From Eledone cirrhosa (lineage: Eukaryota > Mollusca > Cephalopoda > Octopoda > Eledonidae): a stretch of DNA of 64,000 nucleotides. The position numbers were made by a program, and so were the translations under genes. The stretch covers positions 189,881,904 to 189,945,903 of the forward strand of contig OZ024743.1 of the NCBI GenBank assembly GCA_964016885.1, given 5' to 3'. Of this stretch, positions 13,916 to 62,334 are shown one piece after another. The notes under the pieces are model-generated. The model did not search any database. It saw only the letters and a program-made list of their open reading frames with translations, and was not told the origin of the DNA. Positions within the stretch are counted from its first letter, which is position 1. The number at the start of each line of letters is the position of its first letter.

Positions 13916-15365
13916 AATTTTGCTTGTTTATCCCATAGTTATCAGACAACACTCTTGTCTGATACCTTGTTATAAGTAGGCAAATCTTCAAGGTAACAAG
14001 ACTATCTACTTACACTATTTAGCCTTAATAAAATTAATAATTTAATAAAATGAATATTTTTTCCGTTTACCGTTTTCTGTACCCCGGCCGATTAACCCAC
14101 ACGATATGCAAATTAGGCTGCTCAGCCGTTAATATGCAAAAGGAAGTATATACTTTCAGACGTTCAATCAAATGACAAGAAGGTATACGTTACTGACGAT
14201 AGCTAATAAGCTTGAATCTAGTACAGCGTTCCTTTGTCAGTGTTGTACAAATGAGCAACGATGGTTGCTAGACACTGTACGGCTTAATACGGGATGTTTG
14301 TTTACAAACACACCGAGCATTATAATAAATGTTCGTTGAAACCATACGTACATATATATATGTGTGCATGTATGTATATATACATACTACTGTACGTCTG
14401 TATACATATTTGTATGTACGTGTACATACTTATATTTAAGTAACAGCTGTACTAAGAGTGAGAAATGAAATTTCGTTTCATTCTTTCCGTTTATCGTTCG
14501 GTACCCCGGCCGATTAACTCACTCGATATGCAAATTAGGCTGCTCAGCCGTTAATATGCATAAGGAAAGTATATACTTTCAGATGTTCAATCATCTGACA
14601 GGAAGGTATACGTTGCTGACGATAGCTAATAAGCTTGAATCTAGTACAGCGTTCCTTTGTCAGTGTTGTACAAATGAGCAACGATGGTTGCTAGACACTG
14701 TACGGCTTAATACGGGATGTTTGTTTACAAACACACCGAGCATTATAATAAATGTTCGTTGAAACCATACGTACATATATATATGTGTGCATGTATGTAT
14801 ATATATATACATACTACTGTACGTCTGTATACATATTTGTATGTACGTGTACATACTTATATTTAATTAACAGCCGTACTAAGAGTGGGAAATGAAATTT
14901 CGTTTCATTTTTTCCGTTTATCGATTTCGGTGAACCCGGCCGATTAACCCAGTCGATATGCAAATTGGGCTACTCAGCCGTTAATATTATGTATAAGGCA
15001 AGTATATACGTTCAACAATCTGGCAGGAAGGTATATTGCTGACGATAGCTAATAAGCTTGAAACTAGTACAGCGTTTCTTTAACAGTGTTGAACAAATAA
15101 GCAACGATGGTTGATTAATTCGGGTTGTTTGTTTACAAACACACCGAGCATTATATTAAATGTTCGTTGAATCCATACGTACATATATATATCTGTGTAT
15201 GTATGTATATATATATACATACTACTGTACATCTGTATACATATATGTATGTACGTATCCATACTCATATTTAAGTAACAGCCGTACTAAGAGTGAGAAA
15301 TGAAATTTCGTTTCATTTTTTCCGTTTATAGTTTTCGGTATGCCCATCCGATTAACTCACTCGAT

Positions 15366-15373
15366 ATGCAAAT
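15366..15373 (+). promoter_or_regulatory. POU octamer ATGCAAAT in satellite monomer (representative)
   Basis: A perfect ATGCAAAT lies at the same place in 30 of the 31 monomers (26434 reads GGTTTGCAAAT) and in most isolated copies (61650 reads ATTCAAAT). It sits about 90-100 bp upstream of the ribozyme. A second POU-like word, ATGCATAA, follows 30 bp later. Octamers are distal elements of snRNA-type promoters, and amphibian hammerhead satellite 2 is transcribed from such a promoter. Promoter function here is inferred. Confidence 0.4.
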
Positions 15374-15858
15374 TAGGCTGCTCAGCCGTTAATATGCATA
15401 AGGAAAGTATATACTTTCAGATGTTCAATCATCTGGCAGGAAGGTATACGTTACTGACGATAGCTAATAAGCTTGAATCTAGTACAGCGTTCCTTTGTCA
15501 GTGTTGTACAAATGAGCAACGATGGTTGCTAGACACTGTACGGCTTAATACGGGATGTTTGTTTACAAACACACCGAGCATTATAATAAATGTTCGGTGA
15601 ATCCATACGTACATATATATATGTGTGCATGTATGTATATATACATACTACTGTACGTCTGTATACATATATGTATGTACGTATACATACTTATATTTAA
15701 GTAACAGCCGTACTAACAGTGAGAAATGAAATTTCGTTTCATTTTTTCCGTTTATCGTTTTCTGTGCACCCGGCCGAATAACCCACACCATATGCAAATT
15801 GGGCTACTCAGCCGTTAATATGCATAAGGTAAGTATATACGTTCAACAATCTGGCAGG

Positions 15859-15913
15859 ATGGTATACGTTGCTGACGATAGCTAATAAGCTTGAAACTAG
15901 TACAGCGTTCCTT
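15859..15913 (+). ncRNA. hammerhead ribozyme, type I, monomer 5
   Basis: Core CTGACGA at 15872-15878, stem II TAGCT-AATA-AGCTT, GAAA at 15893, self-complementary stem III ACTAGT, predicted cleavage after GTA at 15902. Inner stem I ACGTTG pairs with CAGCGT (6 bp, one G.U). The outer stem reads ATGG against CCTT, losing one pair. Confidence 0.7.
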
Positions 15914-16345
15914 TGTCAGTGTTGAACAAACGAGCAACGATGGTTGCTAGACACTACGGCTTAATACGGGATGTTTGTTTACAAACACACCGAGCATTAT
16001 AATAAATGTTCGGTGAAACCATACGTACATATATATATGTGTGGATGTATGCATATATACATACTACTGTACGTATGAATGTAGTATGTACATATATATA
16101 TATATGTGTGCCTGTATGTATATATATATACATACTACTGTACGTCTGTATACATATATGTATGTACGTATACATACTTATATTTAAGTAACAGCCGTAC
16201 TAACAGTGAGAAATGAAATTTCGTTTCATTTTTTCCGTCTATCGTTGTCTGTGCACCCGGCCGAATAACCCACACCATATGCAAATTGGGCTACTCAGCC
16301 GTTAATATGCATAAGGTAAGTATATACGTTCAACAATCTGGCAGG

Positions 16346-16400
16346 ATGGTATACGTTGCTGACGATAGCTAATAAGCTTGAAACTAGTACAGCGTTCCTT
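16346..16400 (+). ncRNA. hammerhead ribozyme, monomer 6
   Basis: Copy of the monomer-5 ribozyme displaced by 487 bp. Core at 16359-16365, predicted cleavage after 16389, with the same ATGG outer-stem variant. Confidence 0.7.
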
Positions 16401-16832
16401 TGTCAGTGTTGAACAAACGAGCAACGATGGTTGCTAGACACTACGGCTTAATACGGGATGTTTGTTTACAAACACACCGAGCATTATAATAAATGTTCGG
16501 TGAAACCATACGTACAAATATATATGTGTGGATGTATGCATATATACATACTACTGTACGTATGAATGTAGTATGTACATATATATATATATGTGTGCCT
16601 GTATGTATATATATATACATACTACTGTACGTCTGTATACATATATGTATGTACGTATACATACTTATATTTAAGTAACAGCCGTACTAAGATTGGGAAA
16701 TGAAATTTCGTTTCATTTTTTCCGTTTATCGTTTTCGGTGCACCCGGCCAATTAACCCAGTCGATATGCAAATTGGGCTACTTAGCCGTTAATATGCATA
16801 AGGTAAGTATATACGTTCAACAATCTGGCCGG

Positions 16833-16887
16833 AAGGTATATGTTGCTGACGATAGCTAATAAGCTTGAAACTAGTACAGCGTTCCTT
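16833..16887 (+). ncRNA. hammerhead ribozyme, monomer 7
   Basis: Core 16846-16852, predicted cleavage after 16876. Inner stem ATGTTG with CAGCGT uses two G.U pairs. Outer stem AAGG with CCTT is intact. Confidence 0.7.
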
Positions 16888-18085
16888 TGTCAATGTTGAA
16901 CAAACGAGAAACGATCGTTGCTGGACATTACGGCTTAATACGGGATGTTTGCTTACAAACACACCGAGGATTATCATAAGTCTTCGTTGACGCCATACGT
17001 ACATATATATATGTGTGCCTGTATGTATATATATATACATTCTACTGTACGTCTGTATACATATTTGTATGTACGTGTACATACATATATTTAAGTAACA
17101 GCCGTACTAAGAGTGGGAAATGAAATTTCGTTTCATTTCTTCCGTTTATCGATTTCGGTGAACCGGCCGATTAACCCAGTCGATATGCAAATTGGGCTAC
17201 TCAGCCGTTAATATGCATAAGGTAAGTATATACGTTCAACAATCTGGCAGGAAGGTATATTGCTGACGATAGCTAATAAGCTTGAAACTAGTACAGCGTT
17301 TCTTTAACAGTGTTGAACAAATGAGCAACGATGGTTGCTTAATTCGGGTTGTTTGTTTACAAACACACCGAGCATTATATTAAATGTTCGGTGAATCCAT
17401 ACGTACATATATATATCTGTGCATGTATGTATATATATATACATACTACTGTACATCTGTATACATATATGTATGTACGTATACATACTCATATTTAAGT
17501 AACAGCCGTACTAAGAGTGAGAAATGAAATTTCGTTTCATTTTTTCGTTTATAGTTTTCGGTATGTCCATCATAATAACTCACTCGATATGCAAATTAGG
17601 CTGCTCAGCCGTTAATATGCATAAGGAAAGTATATACTTTCAGATGTTCAATCATCTGGCAGGAAGGTATACGTTGCTGACGATAGCTCATAAGCCTAAA
17701 ACTAGTACAGCGTTCCTTGGTCAGTGTTGTACAAATGAGCAACGATGGTTGCTAGACACTGTACGGCTTAATACGTGATGTTTGTTTACAAACACACCGA
17801 GCATTATAATAAATGTTCAGTGCATCCATACGTAGATATATACACGTGTGCATGTATGTATATATATATACATACTACTGTACGTCTGTATACATATATC
17901 TATGTACGTGTACGTACTTATATTTAAGTAACAGCCGTAGTAAGATTGGGAAATGAAATTTCGTTTCATTTTTTCCGTTTACCGTTTTCTGTGCACCCGG
18001 CCGATTAACCCACCGGATATGCAAATTGGACTACTCAGCCGTTAATATGCATAAGGTAAGTATATACGTTCAACAATCTGGCAGG

Positions 18086-18140
18086 AAGGTATACGTTGCT
18101 GACGATAGCTAATAAGCTTGAAACTAGTACAGTGTTCCTT
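18086..18140 (+). ncRNA. hammerhead ribozyme, monomer 10
   Basis: Core 18099-18105, predicted cleavage after 18129. Inner stem ACGTTG with CAGTGT keeps pairing through a G.U at the fourth pair. Confidence 0.7.
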
Positions 18141-18159
18141 TGTAACTGTTGAACAAACG

Positions 18160-19837
18160 AGCAACGATGGTTGCTAGACACTACGGTTTAATAGGGGATG
18201 TTTGTTTACAAATACACCGAGCATTATAATAAATATTCGGTGAAACCATACGTATATATATATATGTGTGCATGTATGTATATATATATACACATACTAC
18301 TGTACGCCTGTATACATATTTGTATGTACGTGTACATACTTATATTTAAGTAACAGCCGTACTAAGAGTGGGAAATGAAATTTCGTTTCATTTTTTCCGT
18401 TTATCGATTTCGGTGAACCGGGCCGATTAACCCAGTCGATATGCAAATTGGGCTACTCAGCCGTTAATATGCATAAGGTAAGTATATACGTTCAACAATC
18501 TGGCAGGGAGGTATATTGCTGACGATAGCTAATAAGCTTGAAACTAGTACAGCGTTTCTTTAACAGTGTTGAACAAATGAGCAACGATGGTTGCTTAATT
18601 CGGGTTGTTTGTTTACAAACACACCGAGCATTATAATAAATGTTCAGTGAATCCATACGTACATATATATATGTGTGCATGTATGTATATATATATACAT
18701 ACTACTGTACGTCTGTATACATATATGGATGTACGTATACATACTCATATTTAGGTAACAGCCGTACTAAGAGTGAGAAATGAAATTTCGTTTCATTTTT
18801 TCCGTTTAAAGTTTTCGGTATGCCCGACCGTTTAACCCACTCGATATGCAAATTAGGCTGCTCAGCCGTTAATATGCATAAGGAAAGTATATACTTTCAG
18901 ACGTTCAATCATCTGGCAGGAAGTTATAAGTTGCTGACGATAGCTAATAAGCCTGAAACTAGTACAGTGTTCCTTTGTCAGTGTTGAATAAATGAGCAAC
19001 GATGGTTGCTAGACACTACGGTTTAATAGGGGATGTTTGTTTACAAATACACCGAGCATTATAATAAATATTCGGTGAAACCATACGTATATATATATAT
19101 GTGTGCATGTATGTATATATATATACACATACTACTGTACGCCTGTATACATATTTGTATGTACGTGTACATACTTATATTTAAGTAACAGCCGTACTAA
19201 GAGTGGGAAATGAAATTTCGTTTCATTTTTTCCGTTTATCGATTTCGGTGAACCGGGCCGATTAACCCAGTCGATATGCAAATTGGGCTACTCAGCCGTT
19301 AATATGCATAAGGTAAGTATATACGTTCAACAATCTGGCAGGGAGGTATATTGCTGACGATAGCTAATAAGCTTGAAACTAGTACAGCGTTTCTTTAACA
19401 GTGTTGAACAAATGAGCAACGATGGTTGCTTAATTCGGGTTGTTTGTTTACAAACACACCGAGCATTATAATAAATGTTCAGTGAATCCATACGTACATA
19501 TATATATGTGTGCATGTATGTATATATATATACATACTACTGTACGTCTGTATACATATATGTATGTACGTATACATACTCATATTTAGGTAACAGCCGT
19601 ACTAAGAGTGAGAAATGAAATTTCGTTTCATTTTTTCCGTTTAAAGTTTTCGGTATGCCCGACCGATTAACCCACTCGATATGCAAATTAGGCTGCTCAG
19701 CCGTTAATATGCATAAGGAAAGTATATACTTTCAGACGTTCAATCATCTGGCAGGAAGTTATAAGTTGCTGACTATAGCTAATAAGCCTGAAACTAGTAC
19801 AGTGTTCCTTTGTCAGTGTTGAATAAATGAGCAACGA
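18160..19837 (+). repeat. 835-bp dimer duplicated in tandem
   Basis: A two-monomer block (B then A) repeats at an offset of 834-835 bp. Both copies carry rare variants such as GGTTTAATAGGGGATG, AATACACCGAGC and GTACGCCTGTATAC, so they arose by duplicating a dimer rather than single monomers. Confidence 0.8.
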
Positions 19838-20176
19838 TGGTTGCTAGACACTGTACGGCTTAATTCGGGATGTTTGTTTACAAACACACCGAGCATTATA
19901 AAAAATGTTCGGTGAATCCATACATACATATATATATGTATGTATATATATATATACATACTACTGTACGTCTGTATACTTATATGTATGTACGTATATA
20001 TACATATATTTAATTAACAGCCGTACTAAGAGTGAGAAATGAAATTCGTTTCATTTTTTCCGTTTATCGTATCCGTACCCCGGCCGATTAACTCTCTCGG
20101 TATGCAAATTAGGCTGCTCAGCCGTTTATATGCATTAGCAAAATATATACTTTCAGACGTTCAATCATCTAGCAGG

Positions 20177-20231
20177 AAGGTATATGTTGCTGACGATAGC
20201 TAATAAGCTTGAAACTAGTACAGCGTTCCTT
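20177..20231 (+). ncRNA. hammerhead ribozyme, monomer 15
   Basis: Core 20190-20196, predicted cleavage after 20220. Inner stem ATGTTG with CAGCGT, outer AAGG with CCTT. Confidence 0.7.
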
Positions 20232-22277
20232 TATCAGTGTTGAACAAATGAGCAACGATGGTTGCTAGACACTGTACGGTCTAATACGGGATGTTTGTTT
20301 ACAAACACACCGTGCATTATAATAAATGTTCGGTGAATCCATACGTACATATATATATGTGTGTGCCTGTATGTATATATATATACATACTACTGTACGT
20401 ATGAATACATATAAGTATGTACGTATACATACTTATATTTAAGTAACAGCCGTACTAAGAGTGGGAAAGGAAATTTCGTTTCATTTTTTCCGTTTATCGT
20501 TTTCGGTGCACGCGGCCGATTAACTCACTCGATATGCAAATTGGGCTACTCAGCCGTTAATATGCATAAGGTAAGTATATACGTTCAACAATCTGGCAGG
20601 AAGGTATGTTGCTGACGATAGCTAATAAGCTTGAATCTAGTACAGAGTTCCTTTGACAGTGTTGAACAAATAAGCAACGATGGTTGCTTAATTCGGGTTG
20701 TTTGTTTACAAACACACCGAGCATTATAATAAATCTTCGTTGAAACCATACATACATATATACATGTGTGCATGTATGTATATATATATACATACTACTG
20801 TACGTCTGTATACATATATGTATGTACGTATACATATTTATATTTAAGTAACAGCCGTACTAAGAGTGAGAAATGAAATTTCGGTTCATACTTTCCGTTT
20901 ATCGTTTTCGGTATGCCCGTCCGATTAACTCACTCGATATGCAAATTAGGCTGCTCAGCCGTTAATATGCATAGGGAAAGTATATACTTTCAGACGTTCA
21001 ATCATCTGGCAGGAAGGTATAATTTGCTGACGATAGCTAATAAGCTTGAAACTAGTACAGCGTTCCTTTGTCAGTGTTGAATAAATGAGCAACGATGGTT
21101 GCTAAACACTGTACGGCTTAATTCGGGATGTTTGTTTACAAACACACCGAGCATTATAATAAATGTTCAGTGAATCCATACGTAGATATATACACGTGTG
21201 CATGTATGTATATATATATACATACTACTGTACGCCTGTATACATATTTGTATGTACGTGTACATACTTATATTTAAGTAACAGCCGTACTAAGAATGGG
21301 AAATGAAATTTCGTTTCATTTTTAACGTTTATAGATTTCGGTGAGCCCGGCCGATTAACACACTCGATATGCAAATTGGGCTACTCAGCCGTTAATATGC
21401 ATAAGGTAAGTATATACGTTCAACAATCCGGCAAGAAGGTATGTTGCTGACGATAGCTACTAAGCTTGTATCTAGTACAGCGTTTCTTTAACAGTGTTGA
21501 ACAAATGAGCAACGATGGTTGCTTAATTCGGGTTGTTTGTTTACAAACACACCGAGCATTATAATAAATGTTCAGTGAATCCATACGTAGATATATACAC
21601 GTGTGCATGTATGTATATATATATACATACTACTGTACGTCTGTATACATATATGTATGTACGTATACATACTCATATTTAAGTAACAGCCGTACTAAGA
21701 GTGAGAAATGAAATTTCGTTTCATTTTTTCCGTTTAAAGTTTTCGGTATGCCCGTCCGATTAACCCACTCGATATGCAAATTAGGCTGCTCAGCCGTTAA
21801 TATGCATAAGGAAAGTATATACTTTCAGACGTTCAATCATCTGGCAGGAAGTTATAAGTTGCTGACGATAGCTAATAAGCCTGAAACTAGTACAGTGTTC
21901 CTTTGTCAGTGTTGAATAAATGAGCAACGATGGTTGCTAAACACTGTACGGCTTAATTCGGGATGTTTGTTTACAAACACACCGAGCATTATAAAAAATG
22001 TTCGGTGAATCCATACATACATATATATATGTGTGCATGTATGTATATATATATATACATACTACTGTACGTCTGTATACTTATATGTATGTACGTATAC
22101 ATACATATATTTAATTAACAGCCGTACTAAGAGTGAGAAATGAAATTCGTTTCATTTTTTCCGTTTATCGTATCCGTACCCCGGCCGATTAACTCTCTCG
22201 GTATGCAAATTAGGCTGCTCAGCCGTTTATATGCATAAGCAAAATATATACTTTGAGACGTTCAATCATCTAGCAGG

Positions 22278-22332
22278 AAGGTATACGTTGCTGACGATAG
22301 CTAATAAGCTTGAAACTAGTACAGCGTTCCTT
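22278..22332 (+). ncRNA. hammerhead ribozyme, monomer 20
   Basis: Core 22291-22297, stem III ACTAGT at 22315-22320, predicted cleavage after A22321. Matches the consensus at every core and stem position. Confidence 0.75.
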
Positions 22333-23548
22333 TATCAGTGTTGAACAAATGAGCAACGATGGTTGCTAGACACTGTACGGTCTAATACGGGTTGTTTGTT
22401 TACAAACACACCGTGCATTATAATAAATGTTCGTTGAATCCATACGTACATATATATATGTGTGTGCCTGTATGTATAGATATATACATACTACTGTACG
22501 TCTGAATACATATATGTATGTACGTATACATACTTATATTTAAGTAACAGCCGTACTAAGAGTGGGAAAGGAAATTTCGTTTCATTTTTTCCGTTTATCG
22601 TTTTTTGGTGCACGCGGCCGATTAACTCACTCGATATGCAAATTGGGCTACTCAGCCGTTAATATGCATAAGGTAGTATATACGTTCAACAATCTGGCAG
22701 GAAGGTATGTTGCTGATGATAGCTAATAAGCTTGAATCTAGTACAGAGTTCCTTTGACAGTGTTGAACAAATGAGCAACGATGGTTGCTTACTTCGGGTT
22801 CTTTGTTTACAAACACACCGAGCATTATATTAAATCTTCGTTGAAACCATACATACATATATACATGTGTGCATGTATGTATATATATATACATACTACT
22901 GTACGTCTGTATACATATATGTATGTACGTATACATATTTATATTTAAGTAACAGCCGTACTAAGAGTGAGAAATGAAATTTCGGTTCATACTTTCCGTT
23001 TATCGTTTTCGGTATGCCCGTCCGATTAACACACTCGATATGCAAATTAGGCTGCTCAGCAGGTAATATGCATAAGGAAAGTATATACTTTCAGACGTTC
23101 AATCATCTGGCAGGAAGGTATAATTTGCTGACGATAGCTAATAAGCTTGACACTAGTACAGCGTTCCTTTGTCAGTGTTGAATAAATGAACAACGATGGT
23201 TGCTATACACTGTACGGCTTAATTCGGGATGTTAGTTTACAAATACACCGAGCATTATAAAAAAAATGTTCTGTGAATCCATACGTATATATATATATAT
23301 GTGTGCCTGTATGTATATATATATATACATACTACTGTACGTCTGTATACTTATATGTATGTAGGTATACATACTTTTATTTAAGTAACAGCCGTACTAA
23401 GAGTGAGAAATGAAATTTCGTTTCATTTTTTCCGTATATCGTTTCCGTACCCCGGCCGATTAACTCACTCGGTATGCAAATTAGGCTGCTCAGACGTTAA
23501 TATGCATAGGGAAAGTATATACTTTCAGACGTTCAATCATCTGGCAGG

Positions 23549-23603
23549 AAGGTATACGTTGCTGACGATAGCTAATAAGCTTGAAACTAGTACAGCGTTC
23601 CTT
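23549..23603 (+). ncRNA. hammerhead ribozyme, monomer 23
   Basis: Core 23562-23568, predicted cleavage after 23592. Consensus in all stems. Confidence 0.75.
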
Positions 23604-24812
23604 TATGAGTGTTGAACGAATGAGCAACGATGGTTGCTAGACACTGTACGGCTTAATACGGGATGTTTGTTTACAAATACACCGAGCATTATTAAAAAAT
23701 GTTCTGTGAATCCATACGTATATATATATATGTGTGCATGTATGTATATATATATACATACTATTGTACGCCTGTATACATATTTGTATGTACGTGTACA
23801 TATTTATATTTAAGTAACAGCCGTACTAAGAGTGGGATATGAAATTTCGTTTCATTTTTAACGTTTATAGATTTCGTTGAGCCCGGCCGATTAACACACT
23901 CGATATGCAAATTGGGCTACTCGACCGTTAATATGCATAAGGTAAGTATATACGTTCAACAATCCGGCAAGAAGGTATGTTGTTGACGATAGCTAATAAG
24001 CTTGTATCTAGTACAGCGTTTCTTTAACAGTGTTGAACAAATGAGCAACGATGGTTGCTTAATTCGGGTTGTTTGTTTACAAGGACACCGAGCATTATAT
24101 TAATTGTTCGTTGAATCCATACGTACATATATATATGTGTGCATGTATGTATATATATATACATACTACTGTACGTCTGTATACATATATGTATGTACGT
24201 ATACATATTTATATTTAAGTAACAGCCGTACTAAGAGTGAGAAATGAAATTTTGGTTCATACTTTCCGTTTATCGTTTCGGTATGCCCGTCCGATTAACT
24301 CACTCGATATGCAAATTAGGCTGCTCATCCGTTAATATGCATAAGGAAAGTATATACTTTCAGACGTTCAATCATCTGGCAGGAAGGTATAATTTGCTGA
24401 CGATAGCTAATAAGCTTGAAACTAGTACAGCGTTCCTTTGTCAGTGTTGAATAAATGAGCAACGATGGTTGCTAAACACTGTACGGCTTAATTCGGGATG
24501 TTTGTTTACAAACACACCGAGCATTATAAAAAATGTTCGGTGAATCCATACGTATACATATATATATGTGTGCATGTATGTATATATATATACATACTAC
24601 TGTACGTCTGTATACTTATATGTATGTACGTATACATACATATATTTAATTAACAGCCGTACTAAGAGTGAGAAATGAAATTCGTTTCATTTTTTCCGTT
24701 TATCGTATCCGTACCCCGGCCGATTAACTCTCTCGGTATGCAAATTAGGCTGCTCAGCCGTTTATATGCATAAGCAAAATATATACTTTCAGACGTTCAA
24801 TCATCTAGCAGG

Positions 24813-24867
24813 AAGGTATACGTTGCTGACGATAGCTAATAAGCTTGAAACTAGTACAGCGTTCCTT
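24813..24867 (+). ncRNA. hammerhead ribozyme, monomer 26
   Basis: Core 24826-24832, predicted cleavage after 24856. Consensus. It is the higher-order counterpart of the monomer 20 ribozyme. Confidence 0.75.
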
Positions 24868-26082
24868 TATCAGTGTTGAACAAATGAGCAACGATGGTTC
24901 CTAGACACTGTACGGTCTAATACGGGATGTTTGTTTACAAACACACCGTGCATTATAATAAATGTTCGTTGAATCCATACGTACATATATATATGTGTGT
25001 GCCTGTATGTATATATATATACATACTACTGTACGTCTGAATACATATATGTATGTACGTATACATACTTATATTTAAGTAACAGCCGTACTAAGAGTGG
25101 GAAAGGAAATTTCGTTTCATTTTTAACGTTTATCGTATTTGGTGCACGCGGCCGATTAACTCACTCGATATGCAAATTGGGCTACTCAGCCATTAATATG
25201 CATAAGGTAGTATATACGTTCAACAATCTGGCAGGAAGGTATGTTGCTGATGATAGCTAATAAGCTTGAATCTAGTACAGAGTTCCTTTGACAGTGTTGA
25301 ACAAATGAGCAACGATGGTTGCTTAATTCGGGTTGTTTGTTTACAAACACACCGAGCATTATATTAAATCTTCGTTGAAACCATACATACATATATACAT
25401 GTGTGCATGTATGTATATATATATTCATACTACTGTACGTCTGTATACATATATGTATGTACGTATACATATTTATATTTAAGTAACAGCCGTACTAAGA
25501 GTGAGAAATGAAATTTCGGTTCATACTTTCCGTTTATCGTTTTCGGTATGCCCGTCCGATTAACACACTCGATATGCAAATTAGGCTGCTCAGCCGGTAA
25601 TATGCATAAGGAAAGTATATACTTTCAGACGTTCAATCATCTGGCAGGAAGGTATAATTTGCTGACGATAGCTAATAAGCTTGACACTAGTACAGCGTTC
25701 CTTTGTCAGTGTTGAATAAATGAACAACGATGGTTGCTATACACTGTACGGCTTAATTCGGGATGTTAGTTTACAAATACACCGAGCATTATAAAAAAAA
25801 TGTTCTGTGAATCCATACGTATATATATATATATGTGTGCCTGTATGTATATATATATATACATACTACTGTACGTCTGTATACTTATATGTATGTAGGT
25901 ATACATACTTTTATTTAAGTAACAGCCGTACTAAGAGTGAGAAATGAAATTTCGTTTCATTTTTTCCGTATATCGTTTCCGTACCCCGGCCGATTAACTC
26001 ACTCGGTATGCAAATTAGGCTGCTCAGACGTTAATATGCATAGGGAAAGTATATACTTTCAGACGTTCAATCATCTGGCAGG

Positions 26083-26137
26083 AAGGTATACGTTGCTGAC
26101 GATAGCTAATAAGCTTGAAACTAGTACAGCGTTCCTT
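26083..26137 (+). ncRNA. hammerhead ribozyme, monomer 29
   Basis: Core 26096-26102, predicted cleavage after 26126. Consensus. It is the higher-order counterpart of monomer 23. Confidence 0.75.
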
Positions 26138-26511
26138 TATGAGTGTTGAACGAATGAGCAACGATGGTTGCTAGACACTGTACGGCTTAATACGGGATGT
26201 TTGTTTACAAATACACCGAGCATTATAAAAAAATGTTCTGTGAATCCATACGTATATATATATATGTGTGCATGTATGTATATATATATACATACTACTG
26301 TACGTCTGTATAGTTATATGTATGTACGTATACATACTTATATTTAAGTAACAGCCGTACTAAGAGTGAGAAATGAAATTTCGTTTCATTTTTTTCGTAT
26401 ATCGTTTCCGTACCCCGGCCGATTAACTCACTCGGTTTGCAAATTAGGCTGCTCAGACGTTAATATGCATAAGGAAAGTATATACTTTCAGACGTTCAAT
26501 CAACTGGCAGG

Positions 26512-26566
26512 AAGGTATACGTTGCTGACGATAGCTAATAAGCTTGAAACTAGTACAGCGTTCCTT
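26512..26566 (+). ncRNA. hammerhead ribozyme, monomer 30
   Basis: Core 26525-26531, predicted cleavage after 26555. The ribozyme is consensus although this monomer has lost the octamer (GGTTTGCAAAT). Confidence 0.75.
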
Positions 26567-26930
26567 TATGAGTGTTGAACGAATGATCAACGATGGTTGC
26601 TAGACACTGTACGGCTTAATACGGGATTTTTGTTTACAAACACACCGAGCATTATAATAAATGATCGGTGAATCCATACGTACATATATATGTGTGCATG
26701 TATGTATATATATATACATACTACTCTACGTCTGTATACATATATGTATGTACGTATACATACTTATATTTAAGTAACAGCCATACTAAGAGTGAGAAAT
26801 GAAATTTCGTTTCATTCTTTCCGTTTATCGTTTTCGGTACCCCGGCCGATTAACTCACTCGATATGCAAATTAGGCTGCTCATCCGTTAATATGCATAAG
26901 GTAAGTATATACGTTCAACAATCTGGCAGG

Positions 26931-26985
26931 AAGGTATACGTTGCTGACGATAGCTAATAAGCTTGAAACTAGTACAGCGTTCCTT
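26931..26985 (+). ncRNA. hammerhead ribozyme, monomer 31
   Basis: Core 26944-26950, predicted cleavage after 26974. The last monomer is chimeric: it starts as subtype A (ATTAGGCTGCTC) and continues as subtype B (GGTAAGTATATACGTTCAAC). Confidence 0.75.
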
Positions 26986-27250
26986 TGTCAGTGTTGAACA
27001 AACGAGCAACTATGGTTGCTGGACACTACGGCTTAATACGGGATGTTTGTTCACAAACACACCGAGCATTATAATAAATGTTCGTTGAAACCTTACATAC
27101 ATATATATATGTGTGCCTGTATGTATATATATATATATATACATACTACTGTACGTCTGTATACATATATGTATGTACGTGTACATACTTATATTTAAGT
27201 CACAGCCGTACTAAGTGTGGCAAATGAAATTTCTTTTTATTTTTCCGTTT

Positions 27251-27989
27251 ATATATATATATATATACAGGGTGTGTCTTATTGTGTATGAGTGTCTTTT
27301 TCTATGAGTAAGAGTTCATCGTTTCATCGTGCAATTAACTTGGCAATCCAATAAGAACAATTATCATAGAAAGCAGCTGTTTAATTCCCACTCGTACATT
27401 GTTTAATGAGTAATACCACGAAGAATCATCAACGTGAAGCTATAAAAGAACAAGAGACATTTATCATGAAGTTTTGTATAAAAATCAATGGCGAACTTGT
27501 GTTGTATTCCACTATTATATTTACTCATTATAATTCCACTATTATATATACTCATTATAAATAGACTGCTTCCTATCAAGAGAAGTTTTCAGATTTACTT
27601 CTGCTAATTATGTTCAACACGAATATCGTGTCTAGCATGTTAAATAATTATAATACAACCTTGTCCAATTGTAAGCTGTTTCAATTACATGATGTTTAAC
27701 GTGTCAATTATTGGTTTGTCAATTGATACACCTGAGTGCAATCATCAGCAAACAGTTTCTAATGGGAGAAAGAATACACAAGCACTAACATCCTGGAATT
27801 ACATGTCATATAATATTCAATTTCTTTTATCTTGATTATGAGCTTCAGCCCTGTTAATTGTAATATAAATTTTATCCTTCCAAATGTAACATACTATTGT
27901 GAATTTAATCGACAGAAGATCTTGCCTGCAACGGCAGGATCGTGCTAATAGCAGCCCCACACACACACAGATAAAGATATATATACAGA
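27251..27989. other. array flank, no gene seen
   Basis: Starts with a TATATA tract and TACAGGGTGTGTCTTATTG, which resembles a DNA-transposon end, but I find no partner end. A 28-bp segment (TTCCACTATTATAT-ACTCATTATAA) is tandemly duplicated at 27507-27565. The rest is unrecognised. Confidence 0.45.
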
Positions 27990-33219: not shown

Positions 33220-34120
33220 CGAGGTGTGTTAGAAAAGTTGAAGGACTGATGTCACAAAGATTTATTTCAAACCCAAACTTCACACTAAGAGTTTTCTCCT
33301 TCAAAGTAATCCCCCTGGAGTATGTGACTGTAATCTTAGCTCTCTGCAGCGATCAAACTTTTTTCTTCATAATTTTATATACATATCCTCTGTTTCAGGT
33401 CATCAAGCAATGAGCACAGAGCAACGAACAAACTTGAAAACTCCGTCAGAAGCACTGGGATTGCTGCGGCAAGTGTATGGAGATGAGACGATGTCACGCT
33501 CATGTGTTCTTGAGTGGTGCAAGAGGTTTAAAGAAGAACGCGAGGACGTGGAAGATGATCCCAGGAGCGGAAGGCCCTTAACAACTAGGACTGAGGTCAA
33601 CGTTGAGCGCATCAGGCAGATTGTGCGTAGCGATCGTCGGCTGACTGTTCGACTGATGGCAAATGAGCTGGGCATGAATCGGGACAGCGTCTGGAAGATT
33701 CTCACTGAAGATTTGGACATGCGGAAAGTCTTCGCGAAGATGGTGCCAAAACTGCTGAACGATAACCAGAAGGGTCGACGCATGCAAGTGTGCCAGGACA
33801 TCCTCTGCGTCATGAAACCGAACCAGACTTGCTAGGGACAGTCATCACCGGTGATGATTCATGGATCTTCGAGTACGACCCGGAGGGGGCCCGTTTTGAA
33901 GACGAGGACGACATCAAAAATCAAAAAGGCCCTGACGACGGAACTGCGGAGGATCCCGGAAGAATCCTTCCAGGAGTGCATGCAAGCGTGGCAGAAAAGG
34001 GTGGAAAAGTGCATTAGACTCCAGGGGGATTACTTTGAAGGAGAAAACTTTTAGTGCGAAGTATGGGTTTGAAATAAATCTTTTGTGACATCAGTCCTGG
34101 AACTTTTCTGACACACCTCG
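33220..34120 (+). mobile_element. internally deleted mariner transposon
   Basis: The element is bounded by TA at 33218-33219 and 34121-34122, the expected mariner target duplication. Terminal inverted repeats are about 100 bp long, starting CGAGGTGTGTTAGAAAAG on the left with CTTTTCTGACACACCTCG on the right. They continue through GACTGATGTCACAAA and the AGTAATCCCCCTGGAG block, with a few mismatches. The total length of 901 bp is below the roughly 1.3 kb usual for mariner, because the middle of the transposase is gone. Confidence 0.93.
33410..34054 (+). pseudogene. mariner transposase, frameshifted and internally deleted
   Basis: Starts MSTEQRTNLK, then skips the usual segment of about eight residues before ALGLLRQVYGDETMSR. 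The paired helix-turn-helix region follows: CKRFKEEREDVEDDPRSGRP and LTVRLMANELGMNRDSVWKI. After AKMVPKLLNDNQKGRRMQVC a one-base shift near 33800 moves the reading to RHETEPDLLGTVITGDDSWI, keeping the first catalytic aspartate (TGDDSWIFEYD). The protein then jumps near 33890-33920 straight to the C-terminal ELRRIPEESFQECMQAWQKR and QGDYFEGENF-stop. The second and third catalytic aspartates are therefore absent and no active enzyme is possible. Confidence 0.9.
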
Positions 34121-42412: not shown

Positions 42413-44455
42413 TTACAAGGTAAAACCAGACTGAGAGGACAGATAGAAAACAATGGTACTGTGATGAGGGATGTATGGCGATGTGTCTGCTGTCCTATTA
42501 GTGTGTGCTATCGTGTCGTCTAGATTTGGTGCTGTGGAGAAAGAGAATTTGACAGTGTGTCTATTGAAGTGCTTGTGGTATTTATGTGTGTGTGGGAAGG
42601 ATTGTTCCAGGGCTCTGAAGAAGGTTCCCCGTATATTGGTGGCTACGTGTATAGAGTACGGGGCGTTGTACCATGTCACAGGTCTACTTCGGGCTTTACG
42701 GTGTTTAGTGTGGTTGTGGTTTGGTTGTTGGGTGGGTGCGTTTTGGCCAGGCGTATTTGTCATAGGGTTTCCTACTATTCTATTGGCGTTGTGTCTCGGG
42801 TCTCTAATACTACGTATTCGCGTGCGATATTCAGAGTCCTTAATGGGTTGGAGAGTATAGCTTTATCTCGTGGGCAGTTGTGTGTAACGCTGCCTGTCGT
42901 GCCGGCTAAGGTGGGCCTTAGGTTAGTATTTGTTCTAGGTGTGGTGTCCTTGTTTATGTGCGTTTCTAAGGGTCTGAATAGGTTTAGCAGCGTTGCGGTT
43001 CTCGTTGGGTCATTGTAAGATATCTTCTCAATGTAACCAACCTTTTCAAGTGCGGAGTTATAGTATTCCGCGTGCTGGTTGAAGATAGTTCTATTTGCCG
43101 ACAGGGTGGACAGTCTATAGGAAACGCTTTTCACTATTGAGTTACTTATGCTCCTAGGGTGGTTGGAGTGTCTGTTGACATATCTGAGGTTTTCATTTGG
43201 TTTATGGTAAGGGCGGTAGAGACCTGTGTCTAATTCTAAAGTGACACCTAAGAAGTTTACTGTCCTACTGTTGGGTTCTATTTCTACCGCTAATCCTTGG
43301 GTCATAAAGATATATCTAAGGCGTTTGTGTAGTCTATCTAATTGGCTATTATTGAGTCCACGGGCCATGAGTAGGGCGTCGTCACGGTACAAGCCACCGC
43401 CCATGGTGGGGATCTCATCTATTAATATATTTAGGAGGTATAGGCCTACTATATCGGTAACCTGTGCGGAGTCGGTCGAGCCCCCTTTTAATGTCGAAGC
43501 TATCTGGTCTATTCTGTCATTCCCATAATTTACCGTCAAATTCTAGTAAAGTTTTCCTACTTACTAGTATGATGTCCACCTCCTTTCTGGTGAGGATTGA
43601 TCTGTTTATGGCTGAGATCAGTGCCTTGTTAAGGATGACTGGAGATATAGAGGCGTAGTAGTTCACAATGTCCATTTGGACTAATCGAATGTCCGACTTG
43701 GTTTCAATGCCGGAGAACCAGTCGATTACCTCTTTTGTACACAACCAGAGGCTGAGTTTAGTCCTATTTCTAAGTTCTGGTATAACTCGGTCAATGATAG
43801 ATTTGCTTAGTCTACCTAGGTCTGATTTAGAGGGAGCTATGAGTCTGACCGGTAGTTTGGACTCGAAGTCCGGTTTGTGGTCTTTAATAAATATCCTCGG
43901 TGTCCCAGTTTTGTAGGATTGAGACCTGTCATCTATGCTCAGTTCCGTCATTATTGTTTTCGCCTGTTTGTTTATGTGTGCTAGATTTTCCCGTGTTGAT
44001 GTTTTGTATATTTTAGCTATTTCGTTTGTGATGCATTTCTTGTATGTTTTGTACTCCAAATTATAGATGTTTCCTGTTTTATCGGCCGGAACAATGATGC
44101 CAGGGCTTTTCCTGACCTCTTTTACAGTAGATGCAAGCCCAGACAAGAATGCAGTTCTGTCAGGGTTTCGTGGTGGTTTTCTGAATTTAATAGTCCGGAC
44201 CATGGTAATAATCCTGTCCTCAAACTCCTGTAGGAGTGGGTTGTGCGGTGGGTTTTTTCTCGATTTGAATAGTTTTTTCATGTGGTTGGTGGAATTGTCG
44301 TCGGATCCAGGGGCCCTCCTGTTGTTGTAGTGGTAGGCCCTCCAACATATCCTTCTAATGAAATTGTTGGTCTGCATTAGTAAAAGGTTCATGTATACAT
44401 CATCCGAAGGTATAGGTATGTCTTTTAGGGAGGAAATGTTGTAGAACAATTCCAT
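42413..44455 (-). pseudogene. Penelope-like reverse transcriptase, nearly full length, frameshifted
   Basis: Starts 39 bp inside the upstream pseudo-LTR. Frame 1 (44455-43517, 312 residues): SLKDIPIPSDDVYMNLLLMQ, CWRAYHYNN, FKSRKNPPHNPLL, GIIVPADKTGNIY, IFIKDHKPDFESKLPVRLIA, PSKSDLGRLSKSIIDRVIPE, then motif A LVQMDIVNYYASISPVILNK, ending KTLLEFDGKLWE. Frame 2 (43539-42775) carries GGSTDSAQVTDIVGLYLLNI, catalytic GLYRDDALLM, VNFLGVTLELDTGLYRPYHK, NRHSNHPRSISNSIVKSVSY. Frame 3 (42763-42413) gives VTWYNAPYSIHVATNIRGTF and KHFNRHTVKFSFSTAPNL. One frameshift at about 43530 and another near 42770 break the protein. Key aspartates (MD in motif A, RDD in motif C) are intact. Related families continue into a GIY-YIG nuclease, which I do not see here. 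Confidence 0.85.
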
Positions 44456-44493
44456 GGTGTTCCAGGTAAGCGCTCGACTAAGTAAGGTGCTAA

Positions 44494-44786
44494 ATATCCA
44501 GGGAGTGTAACTTGGAGTTACTGTAGGTTCACCCGGGTGAGCACTCGATGTTTAGGTTCACTTCAGTGTCGAGGTGTAGAGCTAGACAGAGTGTATTATA
44601 GTGAAAAGATAACAAGGACGATTGGTTGCGCCTTCATTACATTTATTGGTTGATGACGCGTGTTTCGCCACTGATCAGCTCAAGGTTCGACCTGTATCGA
44701 TCTTATCCAACTCTGTAATCTGCAGCTCGTCGGACCTCTTGTAATGCTAGTAGAACATTAACATGCTGTATGATAAAGTCAGAAGT
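44494..44786 (-). repeat. Penelope pseudo-LTR, proximal direct copy
   Basis: Same-direction copy of 41410-41704 and upstream of the RT in element orientation. Begins ATATCCAGGGAGTGTAAC and ends TAAAGTCAGAAGT, as does the distal copy. Confidence 0.85.
44655..44678 (-). ncRNA. hammerhead-like motif in pseudo-LTR
   Basis: The minus strand reads CTGATCAGTGGCGAAAC, then ACGCGTC. One core change (G8 to C) separates it from CTGATGA. TTGA before the core can pair with TCAA after the GTC, giving a short stem I. Probably inactive but ancestral to an active form. Confidence 0.45.
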
Positions 44787-49273: not shown

Positions 49274-49925
49274 TTAGGGTAAAGGTGTTAGTGAGAAATA
49301 TATTTTTTTACTAATGATGCCAATGTCAGATTTGGAAGGGCATATAAGTCTTATAGAAGGATTAGAGTTAAAGTTAGATTTGTGATCTTTCAGGTTAAAG
49401 TGTGGTTTTTTCAGTGCCAAAGGTTCAGTTCTGTCTTCAATATTGATTTTATTTACTATGTTGTGTGTTTTGTTGTTGATATTGGTAAGAGCCGCATTAT
49501 TTGTTATTTTATAATTTTTCCTGAGTTCTTTATAAATGAACTTATTGTAATTATCAATATCCATGTGGTATAGATTTCCAGTTTTGTCAGAGTGGACGTG
49601 GACTTTGTTAGATTTTTTTAGATCCAATAGGGTAGAGTCAAGATCCTTTGGAAAATTAGATTTATATTTCTTAAATTTGAGGTGTTTGATTAAGTTAAAT
49701 AGGTCTTTCTCGGAGTTTTCAAGCAAGGAGTTGTGTGGTGGGTTCTTATAAATATTTCTTATCCGTACATTTTTTTTTTTTTATCAAAGTGGTAGGCCCA
49801 CCATCTGACCCTTTTGATGAATTGGTTGGTTTTTTGTATCATAAGAAGTAAGAATTCATCCCTAGAAGGTATTGGTATATTCTTTAAAGAAGTTCCCAAG
49901 TATTGTGTTTCCATTGTAATATGGA
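49274..49925 (-). pseudogene. Penelope-type RT, N-terminal half
   Basis: Starts METQYLGTSLKNIPIPSRDE, FLLLMIQKTNQFIKRVRWWA, YHFDKKKK. After slippage in an A/T run at 49771-49783 it continues through NPPHNSLLENSEKDLFNLIK, VHVHSDKTGNLYHMDIDNYN, FNLKDHKSNFNSNPSIRLIC, PSKSDIGIISKKIYFSL, and stops at 49274. It is colinear with the element at 42.4-44.5 kb but divergent, so it is a different subfamily. Catalytic motifs A and C are missing. Confidence 0.8.
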
Positions 49926-50104: not shown

Positions 50105-50721
50105 GTTTCGGTATTAAACTGTAGCTGATACAAAACATCGGTGTCAGTTTCAATCCACTACTCCAAGACTTTAATCCATAGGCCAAAGCTTACAGTAGAT
50201 GTTCCAATATCACATCTATCACATTTGAAAACAAGTTTATCGAAGTGCCGTAAAACGGTGGGGCTACACTGGTAGAAGCAAGAAATAGTTCGTTATATTT
50301 ACTATCTGACTTTTAAGTGGGAATTATGGATAAAATATAAAAGGCTCGTTTTTTTTAGATATGCATAAAAAAGAACAAACATTTCGATATATTATATACT
50401 TGGAAAGTTAGTCTATCGAATTCCTTTGATTGGCACCAGAGAAGTAAGATCATTTCTGTATTGTTTCTATGTCCGCAACTAGGTTACCTGGGTGGTAATA
50501 GGGAAGTGTATGATGCTACCTAAGCTACTACGGTTCTAATGATATACTGGAGGCAAATCCATCACAAATATTTCAGAAAAGTTGTACCTTGGCAAATAAT
50601 CGTCCTTATGAAAATATGAATTAACAATGAAAATATCTGGAAATTTCATTACAACTTGTGTATCGATGGATGCGTATCACAAGTGAAAGAACACCTGATT
50701 TTGACATTTATTTATTTTTCT
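49926..50721. other. no gene seen, two TA runs
   Basis: TA tracts at 49975-50000 and 50068-50100. The rest is AT-rich and unrecognised. Confidence 0.45.
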
Positions 50722-52085
50722 GTGTAGAGGAAACACGGGTGAAGTCCCAGAAGACTGGAGAAAAGGAGCGGTTGTCTGTATGTCCAAGAAGGGCAACCTT
50801 GTCGATTGTGACAACTGGAGGGGAGTGACACTTCTCTCCATACCAGGGAAGGTCTATTGTCTAGTGATCCTGAACCGCATGCGTGGCATGGTAGACCGGC
50901 AACTGCGAGAACAACAGGCAGGGTTCCGACCAAAACGTTCCTGTGCAGAGCAGATCTTTACGCTACGCCGCATCATTGAGAGGTACAACGAATTCCAGAG
51001 ACCCCTCGCCATCAGCTTCATCGATTTCTCCAAAGCATTCGATAGCATTCATCGACCGTCGCTCTGGAGCATCATGCATGAGTATAGTCTGCGCCAGAAA
51101 GTCATTTCGGCAATCAAACAGATTTACGCTAACTCCAAGAGCTGCATACGGACAGAGGATAGTTACAGTGACTGGTTTGAGGTGGTTACTGGCGTGCGTC
51201 AAGGTTGCTCGCTCTCTCCATTTCTCTTTGCCATAGCCATTGGCTGGGTACTGAGAAGAGCGTCTAAAGACCAGGGTATATCTTGGGTGGGAGAGCAAAT
51301 GTTGTCTGACCTGGACTTTGCGGACGATACTGCTGCACTTGCAGAGAGCAAAGCTGACCTGCAAATCATTGTGAACAATATCAATGTCGAAGCAGGAAGC
51401 TTAGGTCTCAATATCAGTGCCAAGAAGACCAAAAGCATGTTATCTGAGACACACCCACCACCAACCAGTGTCTTCATTGAACAGGGGGAGGTGGAGATAG
51501 TGGACAACTTCACCTACCTAGGAAGCTCCATTAACAATGAGGGCACCATGGACAGTGAACTGCATTTAACCAGCTTGACAAGATCTGGAAGAGCAGGAAG
51601 TTCACCCTCAAAACAAAGATGTGATTCTACAACAGCAATGTGCTGTCCACACTCTTGTACGGAAGTGAAACATGGCACCTTAAGACCAGCCAAGAGAAGA
51701 AGTTGGACGCATTCGATTCCAGATGTGCGAAAGATCCTGGAGATTAAATGGAGTGACCATGTAACAGACCAGGAAGTCAGGAACCGCACCAACCAGCAGC
51801 TAGTCTCTTCCACCATCTGCAAGCGACGCCTGGGCTGGTTTGGACACGCTTTGAGACTTCCCCCGGAGAGACTGGCGAACCAAGTACTTAAATGGAGCCC
51901 GCAGGGAAGCAGGCGGAGAGGGTGACCCAAAATGAACTGGCGCCAGACAGTTGAGTGGGACCTGCTAGCGACAAAGCGACAATGGCGGGACGCTGTGCAA
52001 CTGGCTGCGTACCGAACGCGATGGAACACTATGATTGCCTCATGCGTCGCAAGACGCAGGAGCTTCTGAGTCTGAGTCTGAGTAG
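50722..52085 (+). mobile_element. 5'-truncated RTE-like LINE
   Basis: Begins inside the linker before RT (RGNTGEVPEDWRKGAVVCMS). It carries the whole RT, runs to the C-terminal RRSF-stop at about 52067, and ends in a short (GAGTCT)n tail at 52066-52085. Short tandem 3' tails and 5' truncation are usual for RTE-type LINEs. Confidence 0.85.
50780..51925 (+). pseudogene. RTE-like reverse transcriptase, open but internally frameshifted
   Basis: Open for 381 codons. RT motifs: QQAGFRPKRSCAEQIFTLRR at 46-65, motif A FIDFSKAFDSIH at 80-91 with D82 and D88, motif B GVRQGCSLSPFLFA at 138-151, motif C FADD at 180-183, motif D LGLNISAKKTKSM at 208-220, and FTYLGSSINNEG at 244-255. From about residue 262 to 316 the frame is wrong: the proper sequence (LDKIWKSRKFTLKTKM, stop, FYNSNVLSTLLYGSETWHLK) sits in another frame, and a two-base loss near 51730 restores the original one. 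Residues 330-381 match the usual WxGHxLRxPPExL...GSRRRG end. The stop at 51923 looks like CGA to TGA, because the same frame continues as PKMNWRQTVEWDLLATKRQW to 52067. The openness is therefore misleading; the gene is dead. The ATG is internal. Confidence 0.88.
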
Positions 52086-58647: not shown

Positions 58648-59270
<623 letters not shown>

Positions 59271-61154: not shown

Positions 61155-61718
61155 GAGTGGGAAATGAAATTTTGTTTCATTTTTTCCGTTTATTGTTTTC
61201 GGTGCACCCGGCTGATTAACCCATTCGATATGCAAATTGGGCTACTCAGCCGTTAATATGCATAAGGTAAGTATATACGTTCAACAATCTGGCAGGAAGG
61301 TATACGTTGACGACGATAGCTAATAAGCTTGAAACTAGTACAGCGTTCCTTTGTCAGTGTTGAACAAACGAGCAACGATGGTTGCTAGACACTACGGCTT
61401 AATACGGGATTTTTGTTTACAAACACACCGAGCATTATAATAAATGTTCGGTGAATCCATACGTACATATATATATATGTGTGCATGTATGTATATACAT
61501 ATACATACTACTGTACGTCTGTATGCATATATGTATGTACGTGTACATATTTATATTTAAGTAACAGCCGTACTAAGAGTGGGAAATGAAATATCGTTTC
61601 ATTTTTTCCGTTTATCGTTTTCGCTGCACCCGGCCGATTAACCCACTCGATATTCAAATTGAGCTACTCAGCCGTTAATATGCATAAGGTAAGTATATAC
61701 GTTCAACAATCTGGCAGG

Positions 61719-61773
61719 AAGGTATACGTTGCTGACGATAGCTAATAAGCTTGAAACTAGTACAGCATTCCTT
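61719..61773 (+). ncRNA. hammerhead ribozyme, one stem I mismatch
   Basis: Core 61732-61738, predicted cleavage after 61762. Inner stem ACGTTG faces CAGCAT, giving one C.A mismatch. Confidence 0.55.
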
Positions 61774-62148
61774 TGTCAGTGTTGAACAAACGAGCAACGA
61801 TGGTTGCTAGACACTGTACGGCTTAATACGCGATGTTTGTTTACAAACACACCGAGCATTATAATAAATGTTTGTTGAATCCATACGTACATGTATATAT
61901 GTGTGCATGTATGTATATATATATACATACTAATGTACGTCTGTATACATATATTTATATACGTGTACATACTTATATTTAAGTAACAGCCGTACTAAGA
62001 GTGGGAAATGAAATTTCGTTTCAATTTTTCCGTTTATCGTTTTCGGTGCACCCGGCCGATTAACCCACTCGATATGCAAATTGGGCTACTCAGCCGTTAA
62101 TATGCATAAGTTAAGTATATACTTTCAGACGTTCAACAATCTGGCAGC

Positions 62149-62203
62149 AAGGTATACGTTGCTGACGATAGCTAATAAGCTTGAAACTAGTACAGCGTTC
62201 CTT
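62149..62203 (+). ncRNA. hammerhead ribozyme, last isolated monomer
   Basis: Core 62162-62168, predicted cleavage after 62192. Consensus stems. Confidence 0.7.
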
Positions 62204-62334
62204 TGTCAGTGTTCAATAAACGAGCAACGATAGTTGCTAGATACTGCGGCTTAATACGCGATGTTTGTTTACAAACACACCGAGCATTATAATAAATGTT
62301 TGGTGAATCCATACGTACATATATATATGTGTGT

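What the first reader, a model, noticed from the sequence alone, without database searches (positions are those of the whole stretch)
14045..27250. Tandem satellite whose monomer encodes a hammerhead ribozyme
Seen: across the array a 55-nt block repeats with AAGG-TAT-ACGTTG, core CTGACGA, TAGCT-AATA-AGCTT, GAAA, CTAGTA, then CAGCGT-T-CCTT. It folds as a type I hammerhead: 6-bp inner and 4-bp outer stem I around an internal loop, 4-bp stem II, 3-bp self-complementary stem III, and a GTA cleavage triplet. Eleven of 31 monomers keep the core and inner stem by eye. Known: hammerhead satellites exist in newts, schistosomes and cave crickets, and metazoan retrozymes carry minimal type I hammerheads. 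Inference: this is a cephalopod retrozyme-like satellite whose transcripts self-cleave into units of about 425 nt.
Basis: partly seen in the sequence, partly recalled or inferred. Interest (0 to 1): 0.95.

Follow-up and report, generated by a model that had tools for sequence, protein, structure and literature searches.

The report
Ribozyme repeat inserted like Penelope elements

Summary
Confirmed: 31 copies of a hammerhead-like block in 14056-27252 and 4 more downstream. Given alone, the block's best Rfam match is a hammerhead (E 0.0037, below the gathering score). A second repeat family in the same genome keeps the core but changes five base pairs on both sides and scores 38.6 bits. Stem III is the palindrome ACTAGT, so the ribozyme should act as a dimer. 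It is a metazoan-type retrozyme, not just a satellite.

Beyond the finding: copies elsewhere show how it inserts. 3' ends fall at two sites, A and B, 58-69 nt apart, mostly next to (TA)n: 35 of 40 for family 1. Of 40 family-2 loci 26 are head-to-head, none tail-to-tail. Of 22 head-to-head loci with both ends readable, 20 have one end at A and one at B, none A/A or B/B (one by eye). A target duplication of about 8 bp is seen. This is the published insertion anatomy of Penelope-like elements and suggests one cDNA per DNA strand, each from its own start site. No RNA data; the partner element was not identified.

The parts
14056..27252 (+). main array, 31 blocks, units of 412-434 bp (two of 487)
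   Evidence: left end AATGAAT|ATTTTTTCCG, right end TTTTTCCGTTTAT|(AT)n
22278..22333 (+). representative hammerhead block: outer stem I AAGG/CCTT, inner stem I ACGTTG/CAGCGT, core CTGACGA, stem II, GAAA, palindromic stem III ACTAGT, cleavage predicted after 22321
58678..59122 (+). single-unit insertion in (TA)n, 3' end at site A (59122), hammerhead at 58804-58859
61162..62333 (+). three-block insertion next to (TA)n, 3' part interrupted at about 62333 by another tandem element; hammerheads at 61297, 61719, 62149
61557..61615 (+). one example of the stretch between the two 3'-end sites B and A ('tail'), with a weak hairpin
42775..44551 (-). reverse-transcriptase-like ORFs (two frames) of what I take for a Penelope-like element; relatives of the same family carry a GIY-YIG-like C-terminus
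   Evidence: (no Pfam match); class assigned by recalled motifs
49274..49780 (-). fragment of a second such ORF
   Evidence: no Pfam match; by recalled motifs only
27253..27267 (.). (AT)n directly after the 3' end of the main array (target side)

Best explanation
The repeat is a non-autonomous retroelement of the metazoan retrozyme kind. Its RNA carries a type I hammerhead that cleaves as a dimer through the palindrome ACTAGT and makes unit-length RNA, probably circularised. A Penelope-like element (PLE) supplies the endonuclease and reverse transcriptase in trans. The protein cuts both strands of an AT-rich target, usually (TA)n, about 8 bp apart. Each freed 3' end primes one cDNA on the repeat RNA, one starting at site A and the other at site B, 58-69 nt apart. 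The two cDNAs are joined, often by short microhomology, which gives a head-to-head insertion with a target duplication; running more than once round the RNA gives several units. Shown: hammerhead conservation and covariation, two 3' ends, head-to-head form, A/B pairing, target, and duplication at two loci. Inferred: cleavage, circular template, which PLE does it.
For: Hammerhead: non-CpG divergence, weighted by region and with gaps counted as differences, 0.0115 in the core and 0.0234 in the block against 0.0945 upstream and 0.0511 downstream; 242 monomers, 33 regions; 5 pairs changed on both sides, 0 of 500 shuffles; 17 of 20 family-2 blocks identical, 3 with one substitution; 150 of 242 family-1 monomers intact. 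Insertion: 35 of 40 family-1 3' ends at A or B; family 2: 26 head-to-head, 0 tail-to-tail, 14 single orientation, of 40 loci; A/B in 20 of 22 complete family-2 pairs, 19 by script and 1 by eye; duplication AAATAAAG in a SINE. PLE anatomy: PMC3846280 passages, PMC11167929 parts 1-2 of 4.
Against: No PLE was found that shares the hammerhead or the A-B stretch: 21 PLE-like loci and three further stretches gave only short or AT-rich matches, none below E 1e-4. PLE identity of those ORFs rests on motifs that I recalled; Pfam and PDB gave nothing useful. Five of 40 family-1 3' ends and 2 of 22 family-2 pairs do not fit; in family 1 one pair is A/A, one B/B and one B/other of 11. Family 1 has T.T at 10.1-11.1, which may weaken cleavage. 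In the covariation test the slide by +1 still shows 3 two-sided changes, and the five two-sided changes are five single cells, by my reading all in the one row of family 2. The circular template is only weakly supported: variants private to a locus and shared by all its units occur in 6 of 20 loci, and the units of L030 differ by 5-10%. The PLE paper found no strand difference in start site in vitro and no need for the ribozyme in vitro. No RNA data.
Confidence: 0.74

Rival explanations
1. Moved by a LINE (L1- or RTE-like): head-to-head copies come from twin priming and the fixed 3' ends are LINE tail recognition sites.
For: 5'-inverted L1 copies are known (PMC2912911, start of abstract in a search listing only). 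A LINE-like RT (RVT_1) is in the window at 50705-51925.
Against: In twin priming the second primer starts at an internal, variable site (recalled), so the flank end of the inverted arm should vary. Here both outer ends are at A or B in 20 of 22 complete family-2 pairs and 10 of 11 complete family-1 pairs.
Confidence: 0.12
2. An ordinary satellite spread by unequal crossing-over and extrachromosomal circles; the hammerhead is a relic.
For: Long arrays exist (main array; C28:45.65-45.69 Mb). Many family-1 blocks in the window are broken (14 of 35 intact by the strict rule).
Against: Dispersed insertions of few units with fixed ends, a one-sided orientation pattern and a target duplication; in the best-scoring family-2 copies, 96-100% identical in all but one of the 150 listed matches, the hammerhead is intact in 17 of 20 loci and has one substitution in 3.
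Confidence: 0.06
3. The units are pLTRs cut loose from one particular autonomous PLE, so there is no separate retrozyme; the hammerhead is the PLE's own. (Overlaps with the best explanation: same enzyme and mechanism, other origin; the odds are not exclusive.)
For: PLE pLTRs carry hammerheads, tails and head-to-head ends, and pLTRs alone sufficed in trans in a rotifer (PMC3846280, PMC11167929).
Against: No PLE locus examined shares the sequence. The predicted cut lies 217 and 275 nt before B and A in family 1 (unit positions 187, 404, 32 of 430), against about 85-92 nt in the anole element (from the numbers).
Confidence: 0.3

Closest known systems
Metazoan non-LTR retrozymes (Cervera and de la Pena 2020, PMC7229834: abstract, discussion, first of three parts of the results and passages seen)
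   Same: type I hammerhead in short non-coding tandem repeats of low GC, dimers to large multimers
   Different: what I saw of that paper gives no defined 3' ends, target or helper, and calls PLEs a strong candidate; the review PMC7761336 (its section 7 and passages seen) says these repeats show no motif that could tell the helper. Here two 3' ends, (TA)n targets and paired insertions are visible. Family 2 is 467 bp, slightly over the 150-450 bp quoted.
Penelope-like elements with GIY-YIG endonuclease: Adineta vaga Pen2a (PMC3846280, passages seen) and Anolis Poseidon PAc (PMC11167929, parts 1-2 of 4 seen)
   Same: inverted pLTR at the 5' side, 8-10 bp target duplications, 'tail' on one of the inverted ends, microhomology at a junction, AT-rich target, two RT start sites inside the RNA, both strands cut and extended, hammerhead present
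   Different: no ORF in the repeat; the 3' ends share a few letters with the (TA)n target, whereas PAc starts without homology; tail 58-69 nt instead of 30-40; within one insertion the two sides end at different sites
Newt and axolotl dimeric hammerheads (passages in PMC7229834; newt structure recalled)
   Same: helix III too short for a single molecule, so expected to act as dimer
   Different: palindrome ACTAGT conserved in two families; insertion anatomy not described in what I saw
Rfam Hammerhead_HH9 (RF02275)
   Same: stem I with internal loop and outer stem; best match of both families
   Different: below the gathering score of 52 (20.1 and 38.6 bits); stem III of the model has a loop

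Membership tests
Hammerhead ribozyme, type I | core CUGANGA ... GAAA ... NUH with three stems, open at stem I | tested here: met
   stem III only between two molecules
Hammerhead ribozyme, type I | covariation of stems I and II | tested here: met
   5 pairs changed on both sides, but 7 rows only, picked by me, six of family 1 and one of family 2
Hammerhead ribozyme, type I | Rfam gathering score | tested here: not met
   best hit is a hammerhead but 20.1 and 38.6 bits against 52
Hammerhead ribozyme, type I | self-cleavage | not testable with these tools
   needs transcription of a dimer
Metazoan retrozyme | type I hammerhead inside a non-coding tandem repeat of about 150-450 bp, GC under 50% | tested here: met
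   430 bp, GC 0.367 (family 2: 467 bp, 0.373; slightly long); no stop-to-stop frame of 110 aa or more overlaps the main array
Metazoan retrozyme | no LTR, primer binding site or polypurine tract | not tested
   not searched for
Metazoan retrozyme | target duplication longer than 4 bp when present | tested here: met
   two family-2 loci: AAATAAAG (8 bp; up to 12 if end letters are given to the target) and TATAGAT (about 7, up to 13); unreadable in pure (TA)n
Metazoan retrozyme | linear and circular RNA of unit length | not testable with these tools
   no RNA data
Penelope-like element | ORF with RT and GIY-YIG | tested here: not met
   the repeat is non-coding, so it is not itself an autonomous PLE
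Penelope-like element | insertion anatomy: head-to-head inverted ends, tail on one end, 8-10 bp duplication | tested here: met
   searches compared with the passages
Penelope-like element | pLTR sequence shared with an autonomous copy | tested here: inconclusive
   none in 21 PLE-like loci plus three stretches; most such loci of the genome were not examined (one search scored 117 of 23619 candidates)

The most novel reading that the evidence does not exclude
Animal retrozymes are stand-alone Penelope pLTRs, and Penelope-type insertion is a paired reaction in which the two enzyme subunits use two different start sites on the RNA, one for each cut DNA strand, on a ribozyme-made RNA circle. This would explain tandem, inverted and 'tailed' forms with one mechanism.
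Probability: 0.4. Interest if true: 0.88.

Novelty: new variant of a known kind. Interest (0 to 1): 0.74.

Why it matters
Which machinery spreads animal retrozymes is open in the papers seen: PLEs are named as a strong candidate without a motif to prove it. Here the insertion record points to it. The A/B pairing is a constraint on how Penelope reverse transcriptases work that I did not find in what I read, and it can be tested with a purified protein. Family 2, nearly uniform among its best copies and mostly with an intact ribozyme, is a good living test case.

Tried and rejected
Rfam over the whole array with E-value threshold was swamped by AT-rich microRNA models, so short slices were used. 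A second hammerhead-like fold at window 47090 (-) was found by descriptor but Rfam gives no hammerhead there: rejected. A 13-base match between the family-2 hammerhead and 11 of the PLE-like loci lies, by my reading of the frame, in coding sequence of the GIY-YIG part and was taken as chance. Clustering of 5' ends near site A as proof of a circle: 5' ends are scattered, dropped. Whether units of one insertion share private variants: 6 of 20 loci, mixed.

Counts. One search lists 50 runs; 10 set aside (7 cut by the fetched edge, 1 at N, 1 of family 2, 1 interrupted by another element), 40 counted. The windows for A (25-37) and B (403-409) were drawn after seeing the ends. Of the 12 head-to-head family-1 loci 11 were flagged by the script and L029 was added by eye. 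In family 2, 26 head-to-head loci, 4 set aside because an end reads N; the script counted 19 A/B in the other 22 and I moved L108 to A by eye because a small deletion stands before an intact A end. Three C25 loci look like copies of one segment; with one of them kept the count is 18 of 20. The 40 family-2 loci come from the 40 scored of 643 candidates, and 150 of 206 matches were listed, so short inverted arms may be missing among the 14 single-orientation loci, and the uniformity holds for the best copies only. Family-1 regions are the places listed (40 scored of 2222 candidates) and two extensions; L010/L033 and L025/L039 overlap slightly, and L026, L027, L038 and L040 lie in one array zone, so regions are not independent.
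Full report
What is there. The window lies in a 2.98-Gb genome of 1582 contigs. The array at 14056-27252 holds 31 copies of a 55-56 nt block, spacing 412-434 bp with two of 487, all on the + strand; four more copies lie at 58804, 61297, 61719 and 62149.

Is it a hammerhead? A structural descriptor, written after seeing the block, fits 18 of 35 window copies, none of 5000 shuffled monomers, nothing in the rest of the window and nothing in 30 shuffles of 47000 bases of that rest. Rfam's gathering thresholds find nothing, but when one block is given alone the best of 4227 families is Hammerhead_HH9 with E 0.0037. In 242 monomers of 33 regions (window included), weighted by region and with gaps counted as differences, non-CpG divergence from the commonest letter is 0.0115 at core and cleavage letters, 0.0234 in the whole block, 0.0945 upstream and 0.0511 downstream; subfamily differences add to the flank values. 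The strongest evidence is a second family found next to one of the arrays (L039 3250-3975): core CTGATGA, GAAA and ACTAGT kept, stems I and II rewritten. Family 2 scores 38.6 bits, E 4.1e-9, with the same Rfam model. On seven rows, six of family 1 and one of family 2, five pairs change on both sides and no shuffle of 500 reaches that; the slide by +1 shows three. The two families also align over about 210 nt around the 3' ends (67% identity, E 1e-13) and over 54 ungapped letters of the block (68.5%, E 0.34).

How it would cleave. Stem III is the palindrome ACTAGT. Inside one molecule it leaves no room for a loop. Two molecules can pair through it; for family 2 the predicted minimum-energy dimer is the double hammerhead (-31.6 kcal/mol), for family 1 the double hammerhead (-26.2) is 0.2 from the minimum (-26.4). 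The family-1 dimer energy is not unusual (0.28 of 200 shuffles as low), so energy alone proves nothing. Family 1 has T.T at 10.1-11.1, family 2 has G-C. I therefore expect family 2 to be the better ribozyme. Intact blocks: family 2, 17 of 20 loci identical and 3 with one substitution; family 1, 150 of 242 monomers, with at least one in 30 of 33 regions.

How it inserts. I fetched 32 regions: the places listed and two extensions, and mapped the ends of each run of units. Of 50 runs, 40 have a readable family-1 3' end. Twenty lie at site A (unit position 25-37, 18 of them at exactly 31-32...CCGTTTAT|), 15 at site B (403-409...CATACTTAT|), five elsewhere. For uniform ends the chance of 35 or more in those 20 of 430 positions is about 1e-41 (windows drawn after seeing the ends). 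By eye 33 of the 35 run into an AT-repeat-like flank; L015 and L030 do not. Twelve loci are head-to-head (L011, L012, L013, L014, L017, L018, L020, L021, L022, L024, L029, L035), with 3' ends outward; at 7 of the 11 junctions placed by the script the arms share 2-6 letters. Of 11 with both ends read, 8 are A/B, one A/A, one B/B, one B/other.

Family 2 gives a cleaner view. A genome search scored 40 of 643 candidates and listed 150 of 206 matches, all but one at 96-100% identity, at 40 loci: 26 head-to-head, none tail-to-tail, 14 in one orientation. I fetched both outer ends of all 26. Four have an end that reads N. Of the other 22, 20 have one end at A (312-313) and one at B (239-247), two have A and an end elsewhere, none has A/A or B/B (with L108 assigned by eye). 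Three loci on C25 share flanks; counting them once gives 18 of 20. If the two sites were chosen independently and equally, 18 of 18 unlike pairs has a chance of 4e-6. Where the target is not pure (TA)n a duplication is seen: AAATAAAG in a SINE (L072/L073), about TATAGAT in L070/L071. With the flanks joined over one AAATAAAG, 15 matches to SINE copies in the window and fetched loci are listed; 14 run from the left flank through the site and two letters beyond, and one (L017) spans both flanks at 75% identity.

What it means. A 3' end on each DNA strand, each extended into cDNA, gives exactly the head-to-head form with 3' ends outward, and staggered cuts give the duplication. [quoted passage not shown] The Anolis PLE protein cuts and extends both strands, prefers AT-rich DNA, starts inside the RNA at two sites that bound the tail, and its RNA has a hammerhead (PMC11167929, parts 1 and 2 of 4). 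So these repeats insert like PLEs. The pairing of A with B in single insertions goes beyond what I read: in vitro the start sites did not seem to differ between strands, though the rotifer paper's 'one of the inverted pLTRs' agrees with it. I propose that the two subunits of a PLE dimer each take one site; a dimer is only predicted for the anole protein.

What does not fit or is missing. RT-like ORFs of the kind in the window are abundant (117 matches, the number scored) and one 916-aa frame has a GIY-YIG-like C-terminus, as do frames in L009 and L024, which hold retrozyme copies. But this naming is from recalled motifs: Pfam gives nothing useful and PDB nothing, and the protein database was switched off. 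None of the PLE-like loci examined shares the repeat's sequence. The circular template is inferred; units within a locus are only a little more alike (0.050 same arm, 0.048 opposite arms) than between loci (0.066), and locus-private variants shared by all units occur in 6 of 20 loci, in L035 across both arms. The hairpin between B and A is strong in family 2 (z -3.8) and not in family 1 (z -0.7 and 0.3).

Known or new. Searches of the open library for retrozyme or hammerhead with octopus, cephalopod, squid, dimer or Penelope showed, among the titles listed, no paper on cephalopod retrozymes or on retrozyme insertion ends; each showed only the top 10-20 of 12 to 331 papers, and most subscription papers are not held. 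The giant squid genome paper counts 235 hammerhead 1 ribozymes (PMC6962438, one passage), so hammerheads in cephalopods are not new. The review states that animal retrozymes show no motif telling their helper (PMC7761336, its section 7), while the 2020 paper calls PLEs a strong candidate (PMC7229834, discussion). The element is thus a member of a known kind, with an insertion record that I have not seen described.

Noticed in passing
L061 4615 (+), genome C1 about 360.5476 Mb: A different type I hammerhead-like block with a short stem III and long stem II (descriptor) stands upstream of a 916-aa PLE-like ORF, on the other strand; no Rfam gathering hit.
   Followed up: partly
window 62333-62760: A tandem element of about 226 bp (TAGCGGTTGTCTCCC...) interrupts the third retrozyme insertion.
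   Followed up: no
L021, L024, L032 flanks: Three retrozyme loci lie at or near the same repeat beginning (TA)n-TTTATTAAAATAACAGATT, in L024 followed by a GIY-YIG-like frame; perhaps the end of a PLE that also uses (TA)n.
   Followed up: partly
genome C28:45.646-45.691 Mb (L040, L026, L027, L038): Long family-1 arrays, 19-25 unit segments in each of four fetched stretches.
   Followed up: no
window 50705-51925 and 33242-33835: LINE-type reverse transcriptase (RVT_1, above cut-off) and a mariner-like helix-turn-helix frame (HTH_32 and HTH_48, just below cut-off).
   Followed up: no
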